From: Thermoplasmata archaeon
Lineage (GTDB): Archaea; Thermoplasmatota; Thermoplasmata; Methanomassiliicoccales; Methanomethylophilaceae
Direction of reading: 5' to 3'
Length of the DNA stretch: 64,000 nt
NCBI GenBank assembly: GCA_015063165.1
Contig: SUSZ01000005.1
Span: 46,223 to 110,222 of the forward strand
Below are positions 7,016 through 63,817 of this stretch, in pieces (position 1 is the stretch's first letter; every line of letters starts with the position of its first letter). A program made the position numbers and the translations under genes. Under the pieces are notes generated by a model that was not told the DNA's origin, did not search any database, and saw nothing but the letters and a program-made list of their open reading frames with translations.

Positions 7016-8398
7016 ATGAAGCGGCTCAATCAGATCGTCTGGTACCTGGGGTATTTGATATCGATCATTCCGGTGTGCATGATAGTCATCTACAGCTTCG
7101 GCGCCGATATCCTGGTGTACATCCCTCTTGTGATAGGCATCGTAGGGACCCTGGTCCTGGTGGCTGTCGGCAACGGAGGCGACCTGAACATGGCCCCTCC
7201 GCCTGTCACGGACTATCCTGTGCCGTTCATCGGTCTGAGCAAGATCGGCGGGAGCCAGGTGTACTATCTGGCCAAGAACGGGTTCATGATGTTCGTGGTG
7301 CCATTCGGCGCTGTCAGCGCTCCGATCCTCGCGGTCCTCATAGCGCTCATCACCATTCCGATCGGGCTGGTCATGTTCATAATGGCCGCCTGCCTGATAC
7401 CATATCTCGCCGTCGTGGACGCGCTGTACCTTGCGACGCTGTTCCTTGCCAAGGTTATCGACAGGCACCAGTACAGCGTCAACACCTCCAGGTTCGTCTG
7501 TCCGGAGTGCGGGAAGAAGTCCTACCGTCCTGTGTACGATGTCGAGGGCAGGATGATCCAAGGCTTATGCCCCACAAACAAGGGGATATTCAGCCAGGAG
7601 ATGGAGGTCCGCAGCGTCCCGTGCTTCGGATCCAAGGGCGGAAGGAAGAAGCTCAATCAGTACTGTCCCGACTGCAAGGCCACCGTGGAGACCGAGGAAG
7701 GAAGGTCGTTCGTCGTGAGCATGGCAGGAGCCAAGTCCTCCGGCAAGACCAGCTTCTCTTTCTCCGTCCTGGGCGAGTTCATGTCCACCAACGGGAACCA
7801 CAAGGCCTCCAGCGAGAATTTCTACTTCTCCAGGGACGACGGCCTGCTCGACGACTACCGCAGAGGCATCTGCAATCCTACTCCGCTGAGCTACAACACG
7901 CCCCACATCCTGACATTCGAGGCCGGCCGTTTCGTCACCAAGAGGCACATCTTCATGTGCGACGTGAGCGGAGGCTTCTTCTCCAGCGACTACAGCACCG
8001 ACATCCAGCCTCAGTACGAGTACAACGACGCGATAGTGTTCACCCTGGACCCTACATGCTACAACGCCCAGGACGTCGCGTACGCGGCCTATGTGGGATT
8101 CATGGAGAAGTACCGCCTCTACAACAAGATGGACGCCTCCAAGAAGATCACCGTCCCTATCGCCGTGGTAGCAACCCGCGCAGACAAGCCGGGATCCTTC
8201 GGGAACCTGGTCGGAGCCGAGCTCAGGGAGAAGATGGTCGAGGAGGGCTACTTCCCTCTGATAAACATGATCGAGAAGGACTTCCTGGCGGTGACGTTCT
8301 ATTCCTGCGACGTGTCCAAGGAGGGAACGGCCTCGGAGATAATGAAGCATCTCAGTGATGCCACGGCCTACAAGATCGGGCCTCTCTTCAAAGAATGA
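7016..8398 (+). CDS. Membrane-anchored P-loop GTPase with zinc ribbon (chaperone-GTPase cassette)
   Basis: 460 residues. Predicted membrane helices lie near residues 8-28, 33-52 and 92-145. A zinc ribbon follows (CPEC at 162-165, CPDC at 217-220). The C-terminal half is a TRAFAC-like GTPase: P-loop GAKSSGKT 238-245, Walker B-like DVSGG 316-320 and G4-like TRAD 387-390. It resembles the second GTPase of the cassette (10206) in order of parts and in having a zinc module before the P-loop. It likely works at the inner face of the membrane. Its partners are the Hsp70 and GAP1-like proteins next door. The biochemical role is unknown. Confidence 0.75.
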   Translation: MKRLNQIVWYLGYLISIIPVCMIVIYSFGADILVYIPLVIGIVGTLVLVAVGNGGDLNMAPPPVTDYPVPFIGLSKIGGSQVYYLAKNGFMMFVVPFGAVSAPILAVLIALITIPIGLVMFIMAACLIPYLAVVDALYLATLFLAKVIDRHQYSVNTSRFVCPECGKKSYRPVYDVEGRMIQGLCPTNKGIFSQEMEVRSVPCFGSKGGRKKLNQYCPDCKATVETEEGRSFVVSMAGAKSSGKTSFSFSVLGEFMSTNGNHKASSENFYFSRDDGLLDDYRRGICNPTPLSYNTPHILTFEAGRFVTKRHIFMCDVSGGFFSSDYSTDIQPQYEYNDAIVFTLDPTCYNAQDVAYAAYVGFMEKYRLYNKMDASKKITVPIAVVATRADKPGSFGNLVGAELREKMVEEGYFPLINMIEKDFLAVTFYSCDVSKEGTASEIMKHLSDATAYKIGPLFKE

Positions 8399-8439: not shown

Positions 8440-10020
8440 TCATCCGACCAGATATCTTCTGGCGTTGCGGATCTGGTCGTCGTTCAGCAGACCCTTGGCG
8501 GAGAGCGTGTGGCTCTTCGTGATGTCCCTGAACGTGCAGGTGCATATGATGTCGGCCTTGTCGTTGGCCTCGATGGAGACCTGGACGGGCTCCCCTGCGC
8601 GGCTGTCCGAGGGGATGTCCACGATGAAGGACCCGACCTCCTCGCACTCCTCCTCGGCGACCTCGAGGTTCTCGTCGCTCTCCTCGAACTCGCTCTGGAA
8701 GATCACCACTCCGAGGGCGGTCTGTCCGTCCTTGTGGACGTAGTACTCCCCCTTGTTGGCGATCGGCAGGGTGCGGTTCTTGAAGATGATGTTGGAGATG
8801 AGGTACTTTTGCTGGCTCTCGTCCCAGACTTTGACCCCCATGGTGTGGGAGAGGACCTTCTCGATCTCGATGTCCCCGATCTTGGGGGCGAACTTGGACA
8901 GCTTCGCGTCGGCCTCTCCGACAGGCTGGCCGTCGGTTCCGGTCTCGACGACGACGTCGCGGGTGTTCTGATAGATGGCGGCTCCGGTGGCGATGGCCAG
9001 ATCGGGGTCGTGGAGAAGGATCTTGGACTCGCAGGAAGGGTACGTGGCGATGAGCCCGGCCTTGACCTGGGGCATGCGGGAGGACCCTCCGACCATGACG
9101 AAGTCGTCGATGTCGTCGATGGTGAGCTTGGCGCTCTCGAGGGCGCTGTCGATCTTCATCATGGTGGCCTGGAGCTCACCGGCGGTGGCCGCTTCGAACT
9201 CCTCGCGGGTGACCGTGTATCTGACGGTGGAGGTTCCGATGCGGATTCCTCCCTTGACCTCCTTCAGGGTGCTCAGGGAGATCTTCTGGCCCTCCGCCTT
9301 GGACTTGATGTCGGCGATGACGTCCTTGTCGGCCTCGAGCTCCTCCATGGTGATGTTGGCCTGCTCGCATATCTTGTCCTTGATGATCTGGATGAGGGCC
9401 GCGTCCCAGTCCTTTCCTCCCAGGTTGCAGTCTCCGTCCGTGGAGAGCACTTTGAACCTGTTGTTGTCGATGCTCATGATGGTGACGTCGAAGGTTCCTC
9501 CTCCGAGGTCGTAGACAAGGATGTTCTTCTTTCCGGTGCTCTTGAGGCCGTAGGAGATCGCTGCCGCGGTGGGTTCCTCGATGATGTTGACCTCCTCGAA
9601 CCCGGCGATGAGTCCAGCCTGGCGGGTGGCCTCCCTCTCTTTTGGTCCGAAGTAGGCGGGACAGGTGATGGTGGCGCTTTTCAGCTCCGCGTCGGGGTAT
9701 TTCTCGATGAAGTCGTCGACCAGCTTGCGGACGATCCTGGCGGACAGCTCGATAGGCCCGTATTCCACTCCGCCGATGTTTATGCGCCAGGTGTCTGCCT
9801 CGCTCATGTTCCTCTTGACCGCTTCCACGGTGATCTCCGCGAAAGGGGCCTGGTCCTTGGCGGTCTCTCCGACGCAGAACTCTCCGTTGTCGTAGGTGAT
9901 GACCGATGGAGTGGTGTCATGCTCCTGGTTGTTCTTCACCACGATCGGAGTGCCGGTCGCGTTCATGATCGAAAGGCAGGAATACGTAGTTCCCAGATCG
10001 ATGCCTATGTCGTATATCAT
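8440..10020 (-). CDS. Hsp70-family protein (short DnaK-like chaperone)
   Basis: 526 residues, about 100 shorter than typical DnaK. The ATPase domain is intact: GIDLGTTYS at 6-14, VYDLGGGTFDVT at 169-180, and VMVGGSSRMPQV near 318. The substrate-binding part (about 380-526) is short and the usual lid is reduced, so client handling is probably specialised. It is transcribed divergently from the GTPase gene at 10206. A second Hsp70 fused to a vWA domain and a GrpE homologue lie within the same cassette; no canonical DnaJ is seen. The housekeeping DnaK-DnaJ-GrpE set could lie elsewhere in the genome. Confidence 0.9.
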   Translation of the reverse strand: MIYDIGIDLGTTYSCLSIMNATGTPIVVKNNQEHDTTPSVITYDNGEFCVGETAKDQAPFAEITVEAVKRNMSEADTWRINIGGVEYGPIELSARIVRKLVDDFIEKYPDAELKSATITCPAYFGPKEREATRQAGLIAGFEEVNIIEEPTAAAISYGLKSTGKKNILVYDLGGGTFDVTIMSIDNNRFKVLSTDGDCNLGGKDWDAALIQIIKDKICEQANITMEELEADKDVIADIKSKAEGQKISLSTLKEVKGGIRIGTSTVRYTVTREEFEAATAGELQATMMKIDSALESAKLTIDDIDDFVMVGGSSRMPQVKAGLIATYPSCESKILLHDPDLAIATGAAIYQNTRDVVVETGTDGQPVGEADAKLSKFAPKIGDIEIEKVLSHTMGVKVWDESQQKYLISNIIFKNRTLPIANKGEYYVHKDGQTALGVVIFQSEFEESDENLEVAEEECEEVGSFIVDIPSDSRAGEPVQVSIEANDKADIICTCTFRDITKSHTLSAKGLLNDDQIRNARRYLVG

Positions 10021-10205: not shown

Positions 10206-11414
10206 ATGGCCTTCATCTGTCCGTACTGTTTCGAGTCGATAGGAAGGATAGACGACGTGCATTACATGTGCACGGACGTCGGGCATAACAGCAGGTCAAT
10301 CCTCGAGGAAGATCCCGAATACGCGAGCTACCGCGGTCTCGAGACGTACACTCGCACCACCCATGTCGTCAGGGATTACAACAGGAGGGACCCCAGATGC
10401 GACGTGTGCGGTTCCCGTCTCTCGAGGATGCTGTGCCCGGTGTGCCACAACACGCTCCCGTACGGGATAGACAAGTGGGACCTGAACTTCTTCGCGATAT
10501 TAGGGCCTCGTGCCGTCGGAAAATCGCATTACATAGGCGTGCTGATCAAGGTGCTTGAACGTATGAGCAAGGAGTTCCAGTGGTCGATCAGCCCTATAGA
10601 CTCCAAGGTCAACGACCTGTACAACAAGAAGTACGCCAATTCGTTGTTCAACAAGAAGAAGGGCATAGACCCTACCCGCCGTGTGACGCTGGACATCTAC
10701 GAGCCCCTGGCGTACACGATCAAGGCCTACAACGGGAAGGTGGCGGGCCTGTTCTTCGTGGACACGGCAGGAGAGGACGTCTCCGCCGACGATTACGCCT
10801 ACACGATCCAGAAGTACATCGCGAACTCGTCCGGAATCATATTCCTGGTGGATCCGCTGCAGTTCGACTACGTCAAGGACAGGATAGGGGCCAGGGACAG
10901 CAACAGGGCGAACTACACCCATACTCTTTCGGTCATAAGCCAGGTCTACCGCGCTGGGAAGGGGATGAGCATCAACAAGAAGATCGGAATCCCCCTGGCA
11001 GTCGTGGTCACCAAGTGCGACGTCCTCATCAAGGAGCCCACCAACGAGATGGAGGAGGAGGTCTTCCTCGGGTCGGACTCAGCGATCAACAACCCCCGCA
11101 AGTACGGCGTGTTCGACGAGGAGAACAGCCAGCAGATAAGCGCGGAGATAGAGGCCTTCCTGGACCGCGTGAGCGAGGGGCAGTTCCCCCAGGCCGTCAA
11201 GAACGATTTCAAGGATTACAGGTACTTCGCCGTGTCCGCTTTGGGATCCGAGCCGGACGCCAGCGGGAGCATCAGCGGAGTGTCCCCGATAAGGGTCGAG
11301 GACCCGATGCTCTGGCTGATGGAGAGGGAGACCGCGGTTATCAAGGCTCAGAACACCCAGGAGTCGGTAAAGAAATCCTTCGGCGGATTCTTCAGGAGGC
11401 GTTTCGGTGTCTGA
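10206..11414 (+). CDS. Zinc-ribbon P-loop GTPase, DO-GTPase-like
   Basis: 402 residues. N-terminal zinc-binding cysteines: CPYC 5-8, C22, CDVC 65-68 and CPVC 77-80. The GTPase domain carries P-loop GPRAVGKS 100-107, Walker B DTAGED 186-191 and G4 TKCD 269-272. The P-loop context (FFAILGPRAVGKSHYIGVL) resembles, from memory, the double-GTPase families found beside GAP1 proteins in bacterial conflict systems. The GTG start of the GAP1-like gene overlaps its end by 8 nt, so translation is coupled and the two products probably interact. No transmembrane segment is seen. Confidence 0.8.
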   Translation: MAFICPYCFESIGRIDDVHYMCTDVGHNSRSILEEDPEYASYRGLETYTRTTHVVRDYNRRDPRCDVCGSRLSRMLCPVCHNTLPYGIDKWDLNFFAILGPRAVGKSHYIGVLIKVLERMSKEFQWSISPIDSKVNDLYNKKYANSLFNKKKGIDPTRRVTLDIYEPLAYTIKAYNGKVAGLFFVDTAGEDVSADDYAYTIQKYIANSSGIIFLVDPLQFDYVKDRIGARDSNRANYTHTLSVISQVYRAGKGMSINKKIGIPLAVVVTKCDVLIKEPTNEMEEEVFLGSDSAINNPRKYGVFDEENSQQISAEIEAFLDRVSEGQFPQAVKNDFKDYRYFAVSALGSEPDASGSISGVSPIRVEDPMLWLMERETAVIKAQNTQESVKKSFGGFFRRRFGV

Positions 11415-13788
11415 GCAGCTCGTCTACACCCTCTGCAGGAGCGGGGTCGGGGTGGTGGCCGGATACGGGGTGTATTCCGCCTCCGCAGGCATGGCGACCT
11501 CGGACAGGACAGAGATAGAGTCCAGGTACAGCACATACATCGCCCCCGAATCCATACCGGTCTCCGGAGGCGACGACCCAAACATCGCGAAGATGCCCCG
11601 CAGCCTCGGGTTCTCCAAGCTCGCTTCGGGTCACGAATGCATCACCCACCAGCTGTACACCGGAGCCGACTACGACAATCCTTCCAGGATGGGCAACTAC
11701 ATCTCGCATTCGATAGTCGACCCTTGCTTCGGCTTCTATCCTATCGAGGCCCAGGGATTCGACGGATTCTGCCTGGACATGCGCTACGACGAGATGGACT
11801 GCGATGTGGCTCCTCCGGTCTAGCCGGCTGTGGAGGTCGCCTGTCCTCCAATTATGGGCCGCGTCAAGGCGTTCGTAGGAAGCCACGACAAGATCTTCCT
11901 CCGCGAGCTGGCCTACAGGATTCTCGATTCAATGGACGACAAGCTGAAGAAGGTGTTCGTCGCGGAGAAGTACGACAACGCCGACTGGATGGCCGCAGCG
12001 ACACTCCTGTTCCCGCTGGAGATGTCCAAGCAGGTGTCGTTCGTGACGTACACCGGAAGCCCGGACAGATGCTTCCAGAAGCTCGCAGGGCTGTTCGATA
12101 CTGACGACCTCACGCCGACGGTCTCGCTGTTCGCCATATCCGTCAGGGATCCCAAGGAGTCCGCCAGGGACGAGCTGTTCGACTCCTATGTGGACAACGC
12201 CTATTCCGAAGGCTCCGACAGACAGGCGTTCTTCGACTTCCTGTCAAGGGTCGGATGGAAGGATATCGGGAAAGGGGTCATCGACGCGTACCACATGTTC
12301 GCTGTATGCGAGAAAGGTGTCGTCCCTCCGGAATCGGCCCGTCTGAGATGTCTGGACGCTCTGAAGCAGACTATGGTCTCCGCAAAGGACGATGACATCG
12401 CATCGGTGTATAATGTCGTCAAAGACCGCATGGACCCCGCCATGGCCGACTTTTTCGGCAGCGTGGCCGTGCCCAGGATGAAGGACAGGACGACCGCCGA
12501 AAGGATACTGGCGGAGGTGACGGCATACACGCTGGAACCGTCACGCAGCCTCGGCGTGGGATCCGAGGTCGTCGAGAATTACAGCAGATACAAGGATCCC
12601 GTTCTGAGATGCGTGGACCTGGGCGCCTTGGACCTCATCGACTATCCGGCAGCTAGGTATTACTGTTACAAGGCGTGGTCCGAGTCCAAGGATTCCAAGA
12701 TGGCGGACATCATCTCGGGATACGGCCCTCTGGATGACCTGTTCATAGACGCTTCCTGCAGCGACGGCAGATCCTGCATAGAGGCTCTGGACAAGCTATG
12801 CCCGCTATCGGATGCCGCCAAGGGAAGCATCAAGGACGGCATAGTGTCGCGTGCCGGAAGCCTTCCCAGCGCTCTTCTGAACGACGTGTACGGATTCGGA
12901 TTGACCGAAGACAAGGAACTGGCCGATCGTCTTTCCGAGGCGGTCTCGCAGAGGGACGACCGCCAGGCGATGGAGAGGTCGTTCGTGGACGTCGCGATAG
13001 AGAAGGGCGACAACACCGCCGCCACATCGCTGGCCAAGAAGATCGCGGACTCGTGCATGGAGAGCAACGGGGACATAGCCTCGACCATACGCTTCATAGG
13101 CCAGAGGGCCTCCTCTCTCGATTGGAAGTGCTCGGCCAGCCTGATCACCGCTCTTTCCAAATCCATCGATTTCACCGGGTTCGGCCCGCTGCCCGCTGTC
13201 AGGGAAGCTCTGGCCGCTTTCCCCGACATGGAGGGAATGGTCACCTCCGAAGAGGCTTCCCGCATACGCCTTCTCGACATGGCTGACAGGGTGACCAAGG
13301 ATAGCACCATGGTCGACCCTATGGACGTATCGTCTTTGAGTGCCGAAGACAGGGAAGCGTTCGTGAAGCTCTGCATGGGAAAGACGATTCCAAGGAAGGG
13401 AGGGGACAAGTGGGTCTCCGACCGCTTGAAGCTGTTCTCCGGATGTCCGGAAGAGGCCGCCAGACGTATGGGGACTATAGTCTCCCAATCGGTGCTGGAC
13501 AAGCTGGACGCCGAGATGGTCGCCGCGTTCATCGTCTCCGCGAAAGAGAACGGGGCGTCGGACGAATCCGTCTACGCCAATCTCAAGCTGGACGGCAAGC
13601 AGGCTTCCAAGGTGAGGAAGCTCTTGAAGGACGACATCTTGGAAGCGTTCAACAGCCACTTCAAGGAGGGGGACGCTGGCTCCCACAAGGGCCTGTTCTC
13701 CAAGCCGTCGGAGGAATCGGAAAAGAAAGATGACAAGCCCGAGAGCAAGCCCAAGAAAGGAGGGCTTCTTGGGCTCTTCAGGAGGTGA
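11407..13788 (+). CDS. GAP1-like protein with in-frame UAG codon at residue 139 (probable pyrrolysine)
   Basis: Read through the TAG at 11821-11823, this is one 793-residue protein. Residues 1-138 look like a GAP1 N-terminal domain (QLVYTLCRSG, YGVYSASAGM, GADYDNPSRMGNYISHSIV). Residues after the UAG carry a GAP1 middle-domain pattern (WMAAATLLFPLEM followed by VSFVTYTGSPDR). The rest is helical repeats ending in a Lys/Glu-rich tail. The reading frame is unbroken, and the domains are contiguous in the family. UAG as a true stop would leave a 138-residue N-domain, with restart at GTG 11830 or ATG 11854. A GGAGGT lies at 11832-11837 but is 16 nt from that ATG. Start GTG overlaps the upstream GTPase gene. 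GAP1 proteins are known as partners of conflict-system GTPases; the function here is inferred. Confidence 0.75.
11821..11823 (+). other. In-frame amber codon, candidate pyrrolysine site
   Basis: The TAG interrupts an otherwise open 794-codon frame. Seven nucleotides downstream, TGGAGG (11831-11836) can pair with CCTCCA (11845-11850) around an 8-nt loop, a position reminiscent of the hairpin after UAG in Methanosarcina mtmB. Whether such hairpins matter for read-through is disputed. Confidence 0.6.
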
Positions 13789-13792
13789 CGCC

Positions 13793-15820
13793 ATGAAGGT
13801 AGGGATAGACCTGGGTACGACATATTCGGCCGTCGCATACGTCAACAAGGACGGCCAGCCCGAGATAATCGAGAACGAGTTCGACGAGGAGACCACCCCC
13901 TCCATTGTGGCGTTCTGCGACGGCGATATCGTGGTGGGACGCGAGGCCAGGGAGCTCCAGGCCGCCGGGCTCAGCTCCGTCGTCTCCTCCTTCAAGAGGA
14001 ACATGGGGGACCCCGAGTACTTCTACGAGTACGACGGCAAGAAGTACAGCGCCACCGACCTCTCCGCGATACTCCTCAAGCATATGAAGGAGGTGGCGGA
14101 GCAGCGCATGGGACAGACGGTCGATTCCGCGGTCATCACCGTTCCCGCCTACTTCAACGATCTCCAGAAGATAGCGACCATGGAAGCCGGACGCGCCGCC
14201 GGGCTGAACGTGGAGATGCTGGTGCACGAGCCTACCGCCGCATCCGTGTGCTACGGGATGAAGAACTCCAAGAACAGTACCATGATGACATACGACCTGG
14301 GCGGAGGGACCTTCGACATCACCATCCTCCGCATCACGGACGGATCCATAGAGGTCGTAGGAACCCTAGGCGACCCCAACCTGGGAGGAAAGGACTGGGA
14401 CGAGGTCGTCAAGGAGATCCTGGCCGACCAGTTCATGGACGAGTTCTCGATAGACCTTCACAACGACGACGAGTTCGTCACGAAGTTCTCCGTCGAGGCA
14501 GAGAAGATCAAGAAGATGCTGTCGTTCAACTCCCCCATCCGCGTTCCGCTCAGGTTCTCCGGGAAGAGCATGGTCGCCGTCGTGACCAGGGAGGACTTCG
14601 AGTTCAGGTCCTCCGGTCTGGTGGATTCCACCGTCCAGATGTGCGAGCAGCTCCTGAGCGACCTGTCGATGACCTGGAGCGACCTCTCCGACGTGATCCT
14701 GGTGGGCGGTTCCACCCGCCTTCCTGCTATCAGAGAAGCCCTGAAAGCCTCCGGAGTCAACCTGATAATCAACGAGGACACCGACACCGCCGTGGCCAAG
14801 GGAGCGGCTCTGCTGGCGACCTCGGACGAGGGACGCATATCCAAGAGGAAGCCCGGGGAGGTGGACACCCGCATCATGAAGGTCAGCGACGCGATAGCGC
14901 ACAGCCTGGGCGCCCTCGCCGAGGATTCCTCCGGGACCCGTTACATCAACGACGTCATCATCCCCCGCTCGTCCAAGATCCCGGCGGTCGAGAAGCGCCC
15001 GTTCGAGATCAGGAAGGGGAACTTCACCGAGAAGATAGACATCTACACGCTTCAGGGGGAGAGCAAGCATCCCCTGGAATGCACCGTCTTGAAGATGGTC
15101 ACCGCCGAAGGGATAGAGAACGACGGCAGAGGGGTCAAGATCGAGATCGAGTACTCCTACGACAGGAGCGGCATGGTCAACGTCCAGGCCTTCCAGGACG
15201 GAAAGCCGCTGACCATGGTCAAGGGGGAGGTCCCCGAGGACGTCTCGTGGATGGGGAAGCCGATAGAGAGGCAGAAGATGGAGTCAGTCCCGGTGTATGT
15301 CATCCTGTCCATGGACCTCTCCGGCAGCATGTGCGGCAAGCCTATCAAGAACGCCACCAAGGCCGCCCACGACTTCGTGAGCATGCTCCCCAACGCGAGG
15401 TTCGCGGTCATAGGCTACGCCAACAAGACCAAGGTCCTCTGCACCGACAAGAGCGCCAAGGAGGTCGGACGCTACATCGACGCCCTCCAGGACACCGAGG
15501 TCGGAGGAGGGAACACCGCCCATCCGTTCGACGAGATCCTCCGCATAAGCCCTCGCGGAAAGTTCAAGGTGTTCGAGATAACGCTCACCGACGGGATGTG
15601 GAGCTGCTGTCCCGCCGCCATTGAATCGGCCAGCAAATGCATGGATGTCGGCATCGGATGCATCGCGGTGGGATTCGGGTCCGCCGACTACAAGTTCCTG
15701 AAGAAGATCTCCTCCATGGACGAAGGCGCCCTCATGAGCAGCGTGGACGGACTGTCGGCGACGTTCTCGACCATCGCATCCACGATCAGCACCGGCGGAT
15801 TCAACAGGTTCATCAGGTGA
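13793..15820 (+). CDS. Hsp70-von Willebrand factor A fusion protein
   Basis: 675 residues. The N-terminal 380 or so form an Hsp70 ATPase domain (GIDLGTTYSAV at 4-14, TYDLGGGTFDIT, VILVGGSTRLPAI). A substrate-binding-like beta domain follows. Residues from about 499 form a vWA domain with an intact MIDAS start, DLSGS near residue 507, then GGNTAHPFDEI and TLTDGMW. Direct fusion of Hsp70 to vWA is unusual. It suggests metal-dependent protein recognition coupled to Hsp70 cycling. The ATG at 13793 sits 7 nt after GGAGG and 4 nt after the GAP1 stop. The gene lies in one operon with the GTPase, GAP1-like and zinc-ribbon genes. Confidence 0.9.
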   Translation: MKVGIDLGTTYSAVAYVNKDGQPEIIENEFDEETTPSIVAFCDGDIVVGREARELQAAGLSSVVSSFKRNMGDPEYFYEYDGKKYSATDLSAILLKHMKEVAEQRMGQTVDSAVITVPAYFNDLQKIATMEAGRAAGLNVEMLVHEPTAASVCYGMKNSKNSTMMTYDLGGGTFDITILRITDGSIEVVGTLGDPNLGGKDWDEVVKEILADQFMDEFSIDLHNDDEFVTKFSVEAEKIKKMLSFNSPIRVPLRFSGKSMVAVVTREDFEFRSSGLVDSTVQMCEQLLSDLSMTWSDLSDVILVGGSTRLPAIREALKASGVNLIINEDTDTAVAKGAALLATSDEGRISKRKPGEVDTRIMKVSDAIAHSLGALAEDSSGTRYINDVIIPRSSKIPAVEKRPFEIRKGNFTEKIDIYTLQGESKHPLECTVLKMVTAEGIENDGRGVKIEIEYSYDRSGMVNVQAFQDGKPLTMVKGEVPEDVSWMGKPIERQKMESVPVYVILSMDLSGSMCGKPIKNATKAAHDFVSMLPNARFAVIGYANKTKVLCTDKSAKEVGRYIDALQDTEVGGGNTAHPFDEILRISPRGKFKVFEITLTDGMWSCCPAAIESASKCMDVGIGCIAVGFGSADYKFLKKISSMDEGALMSSVDGLSATFSTIASTISTGGFNRFIR

Positions 15821-15824
15821 TCGG

Positions 15825-18740
15825 GTGGGCACGGAATGCTTCAGGGAGCTCGGCGTGGATCCCTTCAAGACATACACGCCCTCGGAGCTGGACCGCATCG
15901 TCAGCGAGAAGAGGAGCGAGTACGAGGTCCTGAAGTCGAAGGCCCAGACCGTTCCCGAGAAGAACAAGATAGGGAGGGAGCTGGACGCCCTTCCCGGGTA
16001 CCGCAAGGACCTGGCCGACGCCGGGTGCCGTTCCAAGGCTCAGGAAGAGGTCCTGGCCATAGTCACGAAGGACCTGGAGCGCCATCTCTTCCACCGCATC
16101 GACGGATCCTCCGTGTTCTTCGAGAAGCAGATAGACGACATACTGGAGCCGGCTAGGAAGAAGAACTGGAACGTCGGACCGGAAGTCGTGGGCCACATCA
16201 AGGGAGCGTCCCTGGTCAGCGAGAGCGACTTCAAGGACATCCCCGCGGACAACGCGTTCAACATCCTGAAGCTCCTCGGAACCGACGATATCGTGTCTTG
16301 GACCAACGGGGCCATCAGCAAGCTGTACTCCGAAGGAAGCGACAAGGTCCCCGCGAAGGTGTCCGCCGAGACCTCTTTCCCGACGTTCAAGTCGACCATC
16401 ATGACCCTGGCCGCCAGGGCGCAGAAGTTCCAGAAGAACTCGCACTATCCGGATGCCGAGAAATACTCCGCCCTTCTGAAGAAGGTCACCCCGATGTTCA
16501 TGAACGAGGCCTCCTACACGAAGTTCAGGACCGCCATGGTCATGTACTCCGTCGAGGAGGAGCTCCAGTCCAGCACCACGTCCATGGACTTCCAGTCGAT
16601 CTCCTCCCTGATCAACACCAAGGTCGCCGGCAGGGGCGTGGATGTCAACGACGCCCTCCGCGAGCTTGAGAGGTTCTGCCTGTCCAAGGGTATAGTCGCC
16701 GACTTCTCCAAGGTGACCAAGGAATGCACCGTGTGCGGTTTCTGCGGGTGCAGGTTCGAGGCCGACAAGGAGACCAACTTCTGCCCTTACTGCAACAAGC
16801 CGATAGCGATAGACTGCCCTCGCTGCGGGGTCCGCAACCCCTCTTCCAATCTTCACTGCAAGGGGTGCGGCATCGATTTCTCTCTGATCTCCAACCTTCC
16901 GTTCATCGAGAAAGGCCTGAAAGAGGACATAAGGAACGGGAACCTGCTCTCCGTGAAGGAGACCCTGGCCAAGTTCGAAGGCTACGAGGATTTCGTGGAC
17001 AAGTCCCTGCTCAAGGAGGCGGACGGATTCCTGAAGGACACCAAGGCCCTGTTCGAGGAGCTGGATTCGATGGAGGCCGCCAAGAGGTACTGCGCCGCCT
17101 TGGAGAGGTGCGACGAATACCTCCGCGGACACTCCGCTTTCGACGAGATCAGCGACAGGAGGGCCGAGTACGCCGCCATAGTGGACGACATAGGCAAGAG
17201 GTTCAGAGCCGTCCCGGCGGGCTCCAGCGACCGCTACATAGCCCTCGTAGGGGAGTGCTCCGACCATCCCGACCTGATCAGATACTTCAACAGTAACCGT
17301 CCGCCCTCTCCCGCCAGCGTCACGGTGTCCCAGAACGAGGACGGCCATGTCCTCGTCTCGATGGACTCCCTTCCCCCGAAAGACGCCAGCTACCTCCTGG
17401 TCCGCAAGGAGGGCTCGTCCCCTCTGAACGAGAACGACGGGGTGCAGGTGGCGGAGACCAAGGACAAGGCGTACGTGGACCGCTCCATCTCGTTCGGAGT
17501 GGAGTACCGCTACGCCGTCTACGCCAAGCGCTGGGGGGTCACTTCCACTTCCGCCGCCCTTTCCAAGCCCATAGCGGTCTTCGCAGACGTCATAGACGCG
17601 TCCGCATCGCCTTCGGAGACAGGCATCCGTCTGGACTACAAGGTCCCGAAAGGATGCTCCAAGGTGCTGGTATACAGGTCGGAAGGGTCCGAGCCCTCCG
17701 CATCCGGGGTGCCTTACGCCGACAACGGGACGAAAAGCTTCTTCGTGGACAAGGACGCCCAGGACGACTCGACGACATACAGCTACAGGATCGTCGCCGA
17801 ATACTCGCAGAAGAGGGCCATACCCATGAGGACGAAGGGGGTCGTGGTCTCCTGCAAGCCGATGTCTCCGCCCGACCCGATATCGGACCTCTCGGTGAAG
17901 TTCGCTGGAGGGAGGTTCTCGGTCGGATGCACCTCCGAGGAGGACTACGAGCTGTACTTCTCCAAGGACGCAGCCGACATAGGCATGTCCACCTGCACGG
18001 TAGCGGATTTGGCCCACAGCGCGGAACGCATCGAGGGCATCATGAAGAGCGTGGAAGGGGTCCGCTCCTTCACCCTTCCCCCAGGGGCCGTCGGCAAGGT
18101 GTATCCTGTGGTCACGATAGGCGGCACGGCCATCATAGGCAACGGCGTCCACGTCTCCATGCTGGAGGACGTCTCGGACATCAGGACCGTGATGGACGGG
18201 GACGTCTGCAGCCTGACTTTCAAGTGGCCGAAGGACTGCGGGATGGCCAAGGTCGTCATGAGGTCCGACCGCTATCCTGCGGACGCTTCAGACGGCGAGG
18301 ACGACGTCACGATAATGCAGGAGAGGTACATCCGCGACGGGAACTTCAGGTTCAAGGTCCCGTTCCAGAGGACCTACGCCACTGTCTACGCCCAGTACGG
18401 ATCCAAGGGCAACTCCCAGGGATCCTCCATGATGCTGTCGTCCAGGCAGAACTTGCCCGAGATAAGGTACTCCTTCTCCTATTCGTTCCTAGGCAGGAAA
18501 TGCACCTGCAAGATTTCGGTATCGGACGATATCGACGCTCTGCCGGCGATGATCCTAAGAGGATTCGACAGGTCGATGCCGACGAAGAGCTCCATCGGGA
18601 AGACCTTGGAGGAGATCCCGGCGCAGGAGCTGCGCGGTTTCAATCTGGCCGTTCCCGTGGGAGCCCCGGCTAAGAACATGAAGCTGTTCTTCGTCGATGC
18701 GGACGATAACAGGAGATACCGCCTCATCCACCCTGTCTGA
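15825..18740 (+). CDS. Large zinc-ribbon and beta-sandwich (Fn3-like) protein of the cassette
   Basis: 971 residues from a GTG 4 nt after the Hsp70-vWA stop. Residues 1-60 (CFRELGVDPFKTYTPSELD) look like a degenerate J-domain, though no HPD motif is present. A helical region spans about 60-295. Clustered zinc ribbons lie near 302-350 (CTVCGFCGC, CPYC, CPRCG, CKGCG). A helical segment follows, then repeated beta-sandwich units resembling fibronectin type III from about 495 to 970. No signal peptide or membrane helix is visible, so it is probably cytosolic. It may act as a scaffold or co-chaperone for the neighbouring Hsp70s. That is inferred from position and the J-like start. Confidence 0.65.
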   Translation: MGTECFRELGVDPFKTYTPSELDRIVSEKRSEYEVLKSKAQTVPEKNKIGRELDALPGYRKDLADAGCRSKAQEEVLAIVTKDLERHLFHRIDGSSVFFEKQIDDILEPARKKNWNVGPEVVGHIKGASLVSESDFKDIPADNAFNILKLLGTDDIVSWTNGAISKLYSEGSDKVPAKVSAETSFPTFKSTIMTLAARAQKFQKNSHYPDAEKYSALLKKVTPMFMNEASYTKFRTAMVMYSVEEELQSSTTSMDFQSISSLINTKVAGRGVDVNDALRELERFCLSKGIVADFSKVTKECTVCGFCGCRFEADKETNFCPYCNKPIAIDCPRCGVRNPSSNLHCKGCGIDFSLISNLPFIEKGLKEDIRNGNLLSVKETLAKFEGYEDFVDKSLLKEADGFLKDTKALFEELDSMEAAKRYCAALERCDEYLRGHSAFDEISDRRAEYAAIVDDIGKRFRAVPAGSSDRYIALVGECSDHPDLIRYFNSNRPPSPASVTVSQNEDGHVLVSMDSLPPKDASYLLVRKEGSSPLNENDGVQVAETKDKAYVDRSISFGVEYRYAVYAKRWGVTSTSAALSKPIAVFADVIDASASPSETGIRLDYKVPKGCSKVLVYRSEGSEPSASGVPYADNGTKSFFVDKDAQDDSTTYSYRIVAEYSQKRAIPMRTKGVVVSCKPMSPPDPISDLSVKFAGGRFSVGCTSEEDYELYFSKDAADIGMSTCTVADLAHSAERIEGIMKSVEGVRSFTLPPGAVGKVYPVVTIGGTAIIGNGVHVSMLEDVSDIRTVMDGDVCSLTFKWPKDCGMAKVVMRSDRYPADASDGEDDVTIMQERYIRDGNFRFKVPFQRTYATVYAQYGSKGNSQGSSMMLSSRQNLPEIRYSFSYSFLGRKCTCKISVSDDIDALPAMILRGFDRSMPTKSSIGKTLEEIPAQELRGFNLAVPVGAPAKNMKLFFVDADDNRRYRLIHPV

Positions 18741-18748
18741 GGACGGAC

Positions 18749-19399
18749 TCACTCTTCGTGCTTCCCGATGTAGCGGTACACGTTGACCTTCTCGGGCAGG
18801 AGAACCTTGTCGTCGAGCACGTATCCCGAGCTGACCACCTCGGCCACGGTCTTGTTCAGGGCGGGGTTCTCGGTGTCGATGACCTTCGCCTTGTTGTGCC
18901 TCGGGTACTCGTAAGGGGTGCCGGCCTCGTCGCGGAACCTGACCGCTCCGTTGACCAGGAGGATCTCCTCCAGCATGTCTCCGAAGTTGCACACCGCGTC
19001 TATGGCGTCATCGATGGTGACGCTGTCCCTGTTCTTCTCCATCCTCTCCACGAGGTCGTCCGCGGCCTCTCTGACGTTGGCAACCTTGATCAGGAGCGAC
19101 TTCACGGAGGACTTCTTGACGTCCGTGAGCTCGCCCTTCATGGTCTTGTCGAACTGGGACAGGACCTCGTAGGACATCATCCTCTCGGAGGCCAGGGAGG
19201 TCAGCTTGTCCATCTTGGCCAGGAGCTCGTCGATCCTTGCATCTGGGGCAGGCGCTGTCTCGGGGGCCGGAGTCTCCACGCATCCGGGGCATTCTTCGAC
19301 AGGAGTCTCGGTGGTCTCCTCGACCACGGGCTGCTCTTGGGGCTCTTCGCAGGGCGAAGCGGTGTTCTCGGGTTCGTTGTTGACCTGCATCTCTTCCAT
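18749..19399 (-). CDS. GrpE-like nucleotide exchange factor
   Basis: 216 residues. Residues 1-70 are acidic, Pro/Thr-rich and likely disordered, with a lone CPGC pair. Then comes a long helix (ARIDELLAKMDKLTSLASERM) and the GrpE head domain, ending in the diagnostic VVSSGYVLDDKVLLPEKVNV, compared with the usual GYxLxDRVLRPAxVxV. GrpE releases ADP from Hsp70. The gene converges on the zinc-ribbon gene with 8 nt between stops, so it has its own promoter, yet it belongs functionally with the two Hsp70s of the cassette. Two in-frame ATGs (codons 1 and 4) could serve as start. Confidence 0.8.
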   Translation of the reverse strand: MEEMQVNNEPENTASPCEEPQEQPVVEETTETPVEECPGCVETPAPETAPAPDARIDELLAKMDKLTSLASERMMSYEVLSQFDKTMKGELTDVKKSSVKSLLIKVANVREAADDLVERMEKNRDSVTIDDAIDAVCNFGDMLEEILLVNGAVRFRDEAGTPYEYPRHNKAKVIDTENPALNKTVAEVVSSGYVLDDKVLLPEKVNVYRYIGKHEE

Positions 19400-38863: not shown

Positions 38864-39271
38864 TCAGACATCGAAGACCACGGTGACCGAAGGAGCGGTC
38901 CTGTCGACCTCCATCATGTGGTAGGTCACCGCCTTGATCTCCGACCTGGTCCTGTGCTTGGACCTGTCGAGCTTCTCGCCTCTGCCGTCGCAGACGACCT
39001 TATTCCCATCGAAGCCGACTTTCAGCTCCTTGAAGATCATCTCGTCGCAGTCCAGCATGAACAGGAGCTCCGAAAGGAAGGAGTACAGCATATCCTCGTC
39101 GTCCATCCCCTCCACCTCGAAGCGGACCTCTTCCGAAGTCCCGACGTTGGCTAGGTCTACGGTCTGGTCGAACAGGGCGAACCCGGCGTTGGCGAAGCAT
39201 TCCTCGACGGTGCTCCCGAACGCCTTCACCATAAGGTCCGCGGTGTGGTCGATGAGGATGTACCTTTCCAT
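38864..39271 (-). CDS. Archease
   Basis: 135 residues, full length. Signature YILIDHTADLMVKAFG at the start with the metal-binding Asp of DHTAD, then a C-terminal EIKAVTYHMMEV. Archease activates the RNA ligase RtcB, which joins tRNA halves after intron removal. It is divergent from the HD-domain gene. Confidence 0.92.
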   Translation of the reverse strand: MERYILIDHTADLMVKAFGSTVEECFANAGFALFDQTVDLANVGTSEEVRFEVEGMDDEDMLYSFLSELLFMLDCDEMIFKELKVGFDGNKVVCDGRGEKLDRSKHRTRSEIKAVTYHMMEVDRTAPSVTVVFDV

Positions 39272-39359
39272 GATATACCGAATTTCAAGGTCCGATATCA
39301 ACGTTGCCGACGAAATCAGGTCGGGGCGGGTAAATATCCGTATGTCGTGCGCGACAGGG

Positions 39360-40010
39360 ATGGAAGAAGAAGCGTTCGAGAGGGCCAAGGAGTTCGCGGA
39401 GAAGGTGTTCGAGGGGGATTCCAGCGGGCACGACATCCACCACACCCTGAGGGTCCATTCATTGGCGAGGTCCATATGCGCCGAGGAGGGAGGCGACGAG
39501 GACGTCGTCCGTATGGCCGCTCTTCTCCATGATGTCGACGATCCGAAGCTGTTCCATTCCACCGGATATCCCAACGCCCGCAGGTTCATGGAGGGGGAAG
39601 GTATGGACTCGGAAACGATCGAGAGGGTCGTCAGGATAATCACCCAGATCTCGTTCAAGGGCACAGGCACCGTCGTTCCGGACAGCTTGGAAGGCAGGAT
39701 AGTCCAGGATGCCGACAGGATGGACGCCATCGGCGCGATAGGCATAGCCAGGGCGTTCGCCTACGGAGGCAGCCGCGGGCGTCCCATGCACAATCCCGGG
39801 GAGAAGCCGAAGGAGAACATGACCGAGGCCGAGTACCGCGTGAACCAGGGCACGACGGTCAACCACTTCTACGAGAAGCTTCTGAAGCTGAAGAATCTGA
39901 TGAACACCGATGCCGCGAAGAGGATGGCCGAGGCCCGCCACAGGTACATGCAGGGCTTCCTGGACGAGTTCATGGACGAGTGGGACGGAAAGCGCCGATT
40001 TCTAGCATAG
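39360..40010 (+). CDS. HD-domain phosphohydrolase (YpgQ-like), TAG-terminated
   Basis: 216 residues. The HD motif set is complete: SGHDIHHTLRV, ALLHDVDDPK, and DADRMDAIGAIGIARAF. Relatives act on nucleotides or polyphosphates; the substrate is unknown here. The ATG at 39360 gives the family start; one at 39342 would add six residues. It ends with TAG where the family ends. The next in-frame stop, TGA at 40068-40070, would add 19 non-conserved residues, so TAG acts here as a real stop. Confidence 0.85.
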   Translation: MEEEAFERAKEFAEKVFEGDSSGHDIHHTLRVHSLARSICAEEGGDEDVVRMAALLHDVDDPKLFHSTGYPNARRFMEGEGMDSETIERVVRIITQISFKGTGTVVPDSLEGRIVQDADRMDAIGAIGIARAFAYGGSRGRPMHNPGEKPKENMTEAEYRVNQGTTVNHFYEKLLKLKNLMNTDAAKRMAEARHRYMQGFLDEFMDEWDGKRRFLA

Positions 40011-40044
40011 CCGGTTTTTAGTAGTTCGATTAAAAGTAGAAATT

Positions 40045-40059
40045 CTACGAATATCGTAG
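40045..40059. promoter_or_regulatory. Palindromic operator copy 3, upstream of nadX
   Basis: CTACGAATATCGTAG has the same CTACGA...TCGTAG arms as the two copies upstream of the alanine symporter (3101, 3151). It ends 88 nt before the aspartate dehydrogenase ATG, and a CTTAATATGG TATA candidate lies between. Confidence 0.55.
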
Positions 40060-40147
40060 ATAAACTGTGATTATCGAACGAATTATGGGTATTTTTCTGT
40101 CAGTATCCCGTAAGTGCTTAATATGGATAACAATTTAAGCCGTCCTC

Positions 40148-62494: not shown

Positions 62495-63817
62495 TCATTC
62501 GATCTCCCAGGGAAGCTTGGGGACCAGCAGCTCCGTCATCATCAGAGCGTCAGCAGACTCCAGCGTCCTGGCGTGATCCAGAACGGTCATCTTCTCGGGA
62601 TCTATGTCCCTTCCTATACCTGCGACGGCGGCTTCGTCCTCCATCATCTCCTTCGCGGTGAAGTACAGCCTTTCCGCTATGACCGTCCACGCGCCGTCCT
62701 CTATGAAGGGCTCCCCGTACTCGTTGTCTTTCCATTTCTCCATGAAGGACTCGGACTTCACCCATACCGGCGGACCGGGGTGCTTGTAAGTCTTCGACAG
62801 GACGTCGCGTTCCAGCTCGAACATTATCACGAGCTTGTCGTCCTTCATGTCGTGGACCGCGCGAAGCACGTTGAACGAGAACTAGTTGAGCTTCCTTCCC
62901 AGCGCGTACTGGGTCTTCCACAGCTGCGAGTACAGCACGTCGTCCAGGACGTTCGGCTTCTCGAATATGACGGTCAGGAGCCTGGATCCGTGGTTCTCCG
63001 CTTTCGAGGCGAGCTCCCTCTTGGACATGGGCGATCTCTCCTTGGGGAAGAAGAACCTCATGTCGGGGTTAGCCAGATAGGCTTTGGCCGCCGCTATGAA
63101 CAGCGCCATGGTATCCTCGTGCACCGCGGAAGCCACGTTCCTGCGGGAGTCCACCGGGTCGTACACCACCAGGGGCGAGACCATGGACGGGCCTTTGCTC
63201 TCTATTATCAGAGTGGCGTTGTCCTTCCACTTCTGCGATCCTTCCAGAACTCCGCGGAACGTCCCGTAGTACACCACCAGGATCTCGCACAGGTACCCGG
63301 AGAATCCTCTGGCATCCTGCTCCGCGCCGTACGCGCCTATCCCTTTCATGAACTTCTTGAGCAGACGGACCTCGTTCTTCTGCTCGTCCGCGAGGTGGGA
63401 CAGTATGTACTGCGTGTGGAAGGGCGTCCTGTCCACTGCGCTCTGGAGCTTAGCTGTGCTCTCCAGGCGGTAGCATGGGACCAGGTCGACCTCTATGCCC
63501 TCGAACTCTCCCCTGGTGTAGGGATGGTCGGAGAACATGCGCACTCCGTGGAGGACGTCCTCGCCTATCTTCAGGCCTATGCGCTCCAGCTCGTCGTGCG
63601 GGACCGTGTCCGGAAACATCATGAACACGTCGAAATCGGGATTCGAGAGGAAGGTTCCTTTGGAGAACGACCCGGCCATCCTGACCTCTACGTCGATGCC
63701 GTGCTCTGCCGCATACCTTATGACGATGGCTTCAAGGCGGTCCGCCTTGTCCTGCAACGATGCCACCACCTCTGCGGAGGGCACGATCATCTCCAATACC
63801 TGCTCCTCTAGATTCAT
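62495..63817 (-). CDS. cca: CCA-adding tRNA nucleotidyltransferase with in-frame UAG at residue 312 (probable pyrrolysine)
   Basis: Read through the TAG at 62882-62884, this is a 440-residue protein, the normal length of archaeal class I CCA enzymes. Nucleotidyltransferase motif GSFSKGTFLSNPDFDVFM near residue 49; third carboxylate in GIEVDLVPCY. The central domain includes PYTRGEFEG. After the UAG, FSFNVLRAVHDMKDDKLVIMF and HPGPPVWVKSESFMEKWK match the family's tail domain. Termination at UAG would remove this domain, which contacts the tRNA elbow. The enzyme is essential where tRNA genes lack CCA, as most do here. So UAG is very likely translated. Confidence 0.88.
62882..62884 (-). other. 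In-frame amber codon in cca, candidate pyrrolysine site
   Basis: Context CTCAAC-TAG-TTCTCG on the minus strand. The frame is open for 129 more codons of family-typical sequence. The aligned position lies in the body-tail connection, where no catalytic residue is expected. No hairpin is evident right after it. Confidence 0.7.

What the first reader, a model, noticed from the sequence alone, without database searches (positions are those of the whole stretch)
11407..13788. GAP1-like gene reads through a UAG: candidate pyrrolysine protein in a defence-like system
The frame is open for 794 codons apart from TAG at 11821-11823. GAP1 N-terminal and middle-domain patterns lie on either side of it, in family order. 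TAG is almost never used as a stop in this window. If Pyl is inserted, the system is active only when pyrrolysine and its tRNA are available. That would tie it to methylamine metabolism.
Basis: partly seen in the sequence, partly recalled or inferred. Interest (0 to 1): 0.85.

Follow-up and report, generated by a model that had tools for sequence, protein, structure and literature searches.

The report
Pyrrolysine codon inside archaeal GAP1 gene
A rumen methanogen's GAP1 gene, part of a predicted defence-like GTPase and chaperone system, contains a UAG that is almost certainly read as the rare amino acid pyrrolysine, but so do many other genes in the same genome, including a likely essential tRNA enzyme, so the codon is unlikely to be a special switch.

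Summary
Frame 11407-13788 is open except for TAG at 11821-11823, with GAP1-N2 before it and GAP1-M after it. The genome (a Methanomethylophilaceae relative, probably rumen) has a full pylTSBCD cluster with tRNA-Pyl(CUA). The region after the TAG is under purifying selection. Three orthologues are one continuous frame with Leu at that column; a fourth, in an independently assembled genome (52% identical), has TAG at exactly the same column. UAG is therefore almost certainly translated, as Pyl.

The proposed link to methylamine supply is not supported. In a 309 kb sample, most TAGs are sense codons. All three in the window look like sense. One is in the single-copy CCA-adding enzyme, needed because several tRNAs lack encoded CCA. 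UAG reading must then be constitutive, so GAP1 would not be specially gated. This extends the near-complete UAG-to-Pyl use described for "Ca. M. alvus" (Borrel 2014).

The system is a GAP1-N2/double-GTPase/Hsp70-GrpE system (Kaur 2020) in archaea; its defence role is predicted, not tested. More unusual: UAG recurs at one GAP1 column in two non-sister species; another UAG lies in a partner GTPase of G025; and a PHP phosphoesterase keeps UAG in six species.

The parts
11407..13788 (+). GAP1 gene (GAP1-N2 type), 793 codons read through one UAG; GTG start overlaps the upstream GTPase stop
11821..11823 (+). In-frame TAG, codon 139, context GTC TAG CCG; TAG at the same column in G006 (GTT TAG CCT), CTG/CTT Leu in G026, G001, G002
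11407..11769 (+). GAP1-N2 domain (PF20013), residues 1-121
   Evidence: E 7e-15
11869..12114 (+). GAP1-M domain (PF20014), residues 155-236, after the TAG
   Evidence: E 3e-10
12334..13665 (+). C-terminal alpha-solenoid-like region (about residues 310-753), candidate GAP1-C; no Pfam match
10206..11414 (+). Soluble double-GTPase (DO-GTPase2 match), N-terminal zinc ribbons, P-loop GPRAVGKS
7016..8398 (+). Second GTPase-like component: hydrophobic TM-like N-terminal segments, CxxC zinc ribbons, P-loop GAKSSGKT; homologue of the TM GTPase that carries a TAG in G025
8440..10020 (-). Hsp70 (DnaK-like), divergent gene of the system
13793..15820 (+). Hsp70 fused to a C-terminal vWA domain
15825..18740 (+). 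971-aa zinc-ribbon protein, conserved partner; FNIII-like beta repeats suspected by eye only
18749..19399 (-). GrpE nucleotide exchange factor
62495..63817 (-). Single-copy archaeal CCA-adding enzyme, 440 codons with TAG at codon 312 (62882-62884); Glu (GAG/GAA) in most relatives
39210..40070 (+). HD-domain-like frame with TAG at 40008-40010; the 19-codon tail starts PV as in G026 (RPV), so probably sense

Best explanation
The gene encodes one full-length GAP1-N2-type protein of 793 residues whose residue 139, in the linker after the GAP1-N2 domain, is pyrrolysine. Ribosomes decode UAG with tRNA-Pyl(CUA) charged by PylRS, as they do at most UAG codons in this genome, where UAG has become mainly a sense codon. 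The site is a tolerant position held by Leu in close relatives. GAP1 works with two zinc-ribbon GTPases and an Hsp70/GrpE team as the adaptor of a GTPase switch, predicted to be a conflict or stress system. The UAG is not expected to regulate it. Shown: the open frame, the domains on both sides, the pyl genes, selection on the downstream part, the recurrence of UAG and its genome-wide sense use. Inferred: that the residue is Pyl rather than another amino acid, and the function of the system.
For: pylS, pylB, pylC and pylD exceed their NCBIfam cut-offs and tRNA-Pyl(CUA) lies beside pylS. Two mtmB-like methyltransferase genes with the usual in-frame TAG act as positive controls. GAP1 domains lie on both sides. 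Orthologues G026 and G001 (and the N-terminal part in G002) are continuous with Leu at the column, and G006, from an independent assembly, has TAG there. Post-TAG dN/dS is 0.21 between the two TAG-bearing genes with saturated synonymous sites. Genome-wide sense use of TAG, including the only CCA-adding enzyme while at least four of ten tRNAs lack encoded CCA.
Against: No protein or RNA data. A single aRF1 with standard NIKS, GGQ and YxCxxxF motifs is present, so some termination at UAG is likely. The TAG sits close to the GAP1-N2/GAP1-M boundary in both species, so a short GAP1-N product could be meaningful. pylS was not found in G006, an 82% complete assembly.
Confidence: 0.88

Rival explanations
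1. The UAG is a regulatory branch point. Release factor and tRNA-Pyl compete, yielding a free 138-residue GAP1-N2 domain and a full-length protein in a ratio set by Pyl-tRNA supply, so the system senses pyrrolysine or methylamine status.
For: TAG lies between the GAP1-N2 and GAP1-M matches and recurs at exactly that column in a distant relative although synonymous sites are saturated; aRF1 looks standard.
Against: The CCA-adding enzyme and other proteins need constitutive UAG reading. Three relatives have Leu there. There is no unusual RNA structure downstream (z -0.5 to +0.4).
Confidence: 0.07
2. The UAG terminates translation and GAP1-N and GAP1-M/C are made as two separate proteins, the second starting at GTG 11830 or a later ATG.
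For: A GTG start exists 6 bases after the TAG in the window.
Against: G006 has no start codon directly after its TAG. All other orthologues and the described family are one chain (PMC7159879). TAG is rarely a stop in this genome.
Confidence: 0.03
3. Pseudogene or assembly error: a recent nonsense mutation or a sequencing error.
For: The sequence is a draft assembly in 67 contigs with no reads available here.
Against: The same TAG occurs in an independently assembled genome. There is only one stop in 793 codons, dN/dS is low after the TAG, and the operon is conserved.
Confidence: 0.02

Closest known systems
Putative non-methyltransferase Pyl proteins of 'Ca. Methanomethylophilus alvus' (Borrel et al. 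2014, PMC4153887)
   Same: Gut Methanomassiliicoccales, full pyl set, TAG rarely a stop (1.6% there), TAG inside unrelated genes including Cas1 and a lipid-synthesis enzyme, mostly absent from relatives; the authors proposed constitutive Pyl use.
   Different: GAP1, the CCA-adding enzyme and the PHP protein are not named in their Table 7; here one TAG column recurs in two species and another is kept in six.
GAP1-N2 / double-GTPase systems, Hsp70-GrpE theme (Kaur et al. 2020, PMC7159879)
   Same: DO-GTPase followed by GAP1-N2/GAP1-M, zinc ribbons, a second TM-type GTPase, Hsp70, a second Hsp70 protein, GrpE.
   Different: Found in methanogenic archaea rather than the mainly bacterial groups listed there; Hsp70 fused to vWA; carries in-frame UAG. 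FNIII/DnaJ fusion not confirmed.
Pyl in tRNA-His guanylyltransferase of Methanosarcina (Heinemann 2009, title seen in the reference list of PMC4153887)
   Same: UAG appearing by neutral evolution in an ordinary gene of a Pyl-decoding archaeon.
   Different: Different gene and lineage; here the wider genome uses UAG mainly as sense.
MtmB/MtbB/MttB methylamine methyltransferases
   Same: In-frame UAG read as Pyl by the same machinery.
   Different: There Pyl is the catalytic residue; in GAP1 it stands where relatives have Leu in a linker, with no sign of catalysis.

Membership tests
Pyrrolysine-containing protein | Genome encodes tRNA-Pyl(CUA), PylS and PylBCD | tested here: met
Pyrrolysine-containing protein | In-frame UAG with homologous coding sequence on both sides and aligned sense codon or UAG in orthologues | tested here: met
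Pyrrolysine-containing protein | Sequence after the UAG under purifying selection | tested here: met
   dN/dS 0.21 (G000 against G006)
Pyrrolysine-containing protein | Pyl detected at the residue | not testable with these tools
   needs mass spectrometry
GAP1-N2 type DO-GTPase system | GAP1-N2 and GAP1-M domains in one protein | tested here: met
   above curated cut-offs, provided the UAG is read
GAP1-N2 type DO-GTPase system | DO-GTPase gene directly upstream, with zinc ribbons | tested here: met
   DO-GTPase2 27.5 bits, cut-off 27; CxxC pairs, P-loop
GAP1-N2 type DO-GTPase system | Second GTPase with N-terminal TM segments | tested here: met
   hydrophobic segments, CxxC, P-loop; motif level only, no DO-GTPase Pfam match
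GAP1-N2 type DO-GTPase system | Hsp70 and GrpE (second theme of Kaur 2020) | tested here: met
GAP1-N2 type DO-GTPase system | FNIII-repeat protein, often fused to DnaJ or TPR | tested here: inconclusive
   15825-18740 has zinc ribbons; FNIII or DnaJ not matched by Pfam in five orthologues
GAP1-N2 type DO-GTPase system | GAP1-C domain | tested here: inconclusive
   no Pfam match; model gives a generic alpha-solenoid
Anti-phage defence system | Match to a known defence model, or measured protection | tested here: inconclusive
   no PADLOC match for six proteins; protection not testable here
Pyl- or methylamine-gated gene | UAG decoding conditional on substrate | tested here: inconclusive
   indirect evidence against: UAG in the only CCA-adding enzyme and in many other genes; expression itself not measured

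The most novel reading that the evidence does not exclude
The UAG at the GAP1-N2/GAP1-M boundary is kept or regained by selection in at least two species because competition between aRF1 and tRNA-Pyl sets the ratio of free GAP1-N to full-length GAP1, making this GTPase/chaperone system responsive to pyrrolysine supply or to interference with translation (for example by a virus).
Probability: 0.06. Interest if true: 0.85.

Novelty: new member of a known kind. Interest (0 to 1): 0.45.

Why it matters
Standard gene calling cuts this protein in two, and would do the same to the CCA-adding enzyme and others, so genomes of this clade need annotation with UAG as Pyl. A UAG in the sole tRNA CCA-adding enzyme makes pyrrolysine look indispensable for basic translation rather than only for methylamine use, which is testable in culture. 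Recurrent or conserved UAG columns in GAP1 and a PHP enzyme let one ask whether Pyl outside methyltransferases is ever functional or always neutral.

Tried and rejected
First genome-contig scan with the single protein found no relative; the alignment query found four. RNA structure near the UAG: nothing above shuffles. AlphaFold model: N-terminal 310 residues, including residue 139, below pLDDT 50, so no structural statement about the Pyl site; Foldseek gives only generic helical repeats. PADLOC: no match. Shared ancestry of the two GAP1 TAGs: operon genes cannot reject G000+G006 as sisters (p 0.52), RNAP A' does (p 0.014); both give two state changes on the best tree, so two gains against one old gain with losses is not settled. 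Paper searches for a genome-wide 'Pyl code' study found nothing in the held library; I recall from memory, unverified, a 2025 report of archaea using all TAG codons as Pyl.

Full report
Observation. Window 11407-13788 (+) translates as 793 residues with a single internal stop, TAG at 11821-11823, and ends in TGA. The piece before the TAG matches GAP1-N2 (E 7e-15), the piece after it GAP1-M (E 3e-10), each above the curated cut-off and in family order.

Organism. Close relatives of the locus are rumen and omasum metagenome assemblies labelled Candidatus Methanomethylophilaceae or Methanomassiliicoccaceae. The window's own genome is 2.28 Mb in 67 contigs.

Decoding machinery. The genome holds PylS (255 bits, cut-off 178), PylB (432, cut-off 348), PylC (312, cut-off 248) and PylD (203, cut-off 150) in one cluster, with tRNA-Pyl anticodon CTA next to pylS. 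The same contig carries an mtmB-like gene with the usual in-frame TAG (GLGV-O-GPETP), and a second one is elsewhere. A single aRF1 with ordinary stop-recognition motifs is present, so UAG reading competes with a normal release factor.

Is the part after the TAG translated? Orthologues in G026, G001 and the N-terminal fragment in G002 run straight through with Leu (CTG, CTT, CTT) at the column, inside the invariant string APPV-x-P. G006, 52% identical, has TAG at exactly that column (GTT TAG CCT against GTC TAG CCG). Between the two TAG-bearing genes the part after the TAG has dN/dS 0.21 with saturated synonymous sites (dS about 2.2, fourfold identity 0.39).

How special is this TAG? In about 309 kb of the same genome, 19 of 249 called genes end in TAG; 11 of these have a strongly coding extension, against 20 of 209 for TGA (p 1.8e-6). 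Read-through proteins include a nitroreductase, a DUF2099 protein with E 5e-95 across the TAG, a PHP-domain protein and Sel1-repeat proteins. In the window itself, 62495-63817 (-) is the archaeal CCA-adding enzyme (TIGR03671, 419 bits) with TAG at codon 312. It is single copy in this genome, and 17 of 27 relatives have Glu there. Val, Glu, one Arg and one Gly tRNA among ten inspected have no encoded CCA (tRNA-Pyl does encode it), so the enzyme should be essential (plus general knowledge of tRNA maturation). The third TAG, at 40008, also looks like sense. UAG reading must therefore be constitutive, and a special tie of GAP1 to methylamine supply does not follow. This is the situation Borrel et al. 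described for Ca. M. alvus: 16 extra Pyl proteins, 1.6% TAG stops, proposed constitutive Pyl use (PMC4153887). GAP1, the CCA enzyme and the PHP protein are not named in their table.

What remains unusual. At roughly one non-methyltransferase sense TAG per several thousand codons, an independent hit on the same GAP1 codon in a relative is improbable by uniform chance (about 1e-4; my estimate, not corrected for site tolerance). The best trees need two changes; RNAP A' rejects G000 and G006 as sisters (p 0.014) but the operon genes do not (p 0.52). An old TAG with reversions to Leu, or two gains at a tolerant site, are both open. That old TAGs exist here is shown by the PHP protein, whose TAG is in all six clade members for which the gene was found and in none of 23 others (Met, Ala or Ile there). 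In contrast the CCA and DUF2099 TAGs are private to this genome. In G025 a TAG also occurs in the TM-type GTPase of the same system, where G029 has Gln.

The system. GAP1 follows a zinc-ribbon double-GTPase. Upstream lies a second GTPase-like protein with hydrophobic N-terminal segments, CxxC motifs and a P-loop. Around them are Hsp70, Hsp70-vWA, a conserved 971-residue zinc-ribbon protein and GrpE, in conserved order in five genomes. This matches the Hsp70-GrpE theme of GAP1-N2 systems in Kaur et al. (PMC7159879), which they predict to be conflict systems. The FNIII/DnaJ component and GAP1-C were not confirmed. Among 147 genomes of the order, GAP1-N2 was above cut-off in seven, all of one genus. 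Anti-phage function is untested and PADLOC has no match.

Mechanism. Most likely: UAG 139 is read as Pyl by the ordinary genome-wide route, giving a full-length adaptor protein; the residue sits in the linker after GAP1-N2 and replaces a Leu. No RNA element was found. The regulatory reading (two products, ratio set by Pyl-tRNA) is not excluded, because the TAG sits between the two domains in both species, but nothing here supports it positively.

Verdict. Observation confirmed; Pyl read-through well supported; methylamine gating not supported. New member of a known kind, with recurrent and conserved UAG columns as the part worth following.

Noticed in passing
L038:12833-13579 (-) = G000:C17:32833-33579; orthologues L133-L137: PHP-domain phosphoesterase with TAG in the motif VHGETVxEPV-O-PGTN, kept in all six clade members for which the gene was found while 23 other genus members have Met/Ala/Ile: a conserved candidate Pyl site outside methyltransferases, not named in Borrel's table.
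   Followed up: partly
window 62495-63817 (-), codon 312 at 62882-62884: The only CCA-adding enzyme carries an in-frame TAG (Glu in most relatives); would make Pyl decoding necessary for tRNA maturation.
   Followed up: yes
G000:C43:17395-20133 (L098), G026:C13:2480-5227 (L097): Second, divergent RNA polymerase A' genes beside the normal copies (67% and 80% identical); the G026 one has an in-frame TAG.
   Followed up: partly
L026:6103-7443 (G025): TM-type GTPase of the same GAP1 system has an in-frame TAG shortly before the P-loop (Gln in G029).
   Followed up: partly
GAP1 TAG (window 11821) and PHP TAG (L038): Both recurrent/conserved TAGs sit in the same local context Pro-Val-TAG, followed by Pro in all but one copy, replacing hydrophobic residues; may be chance or a decoding context.
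   Followed up: no
window 10206-13788 against relatives: Within the conserved operon GAP1 evolves much faster (52-60% identity) than its GTPase and Hsp70 partners (about 77-85%), especially after GAP1-M, as expected of a conflict-type sensor or adaptor.
   Followed up: partly
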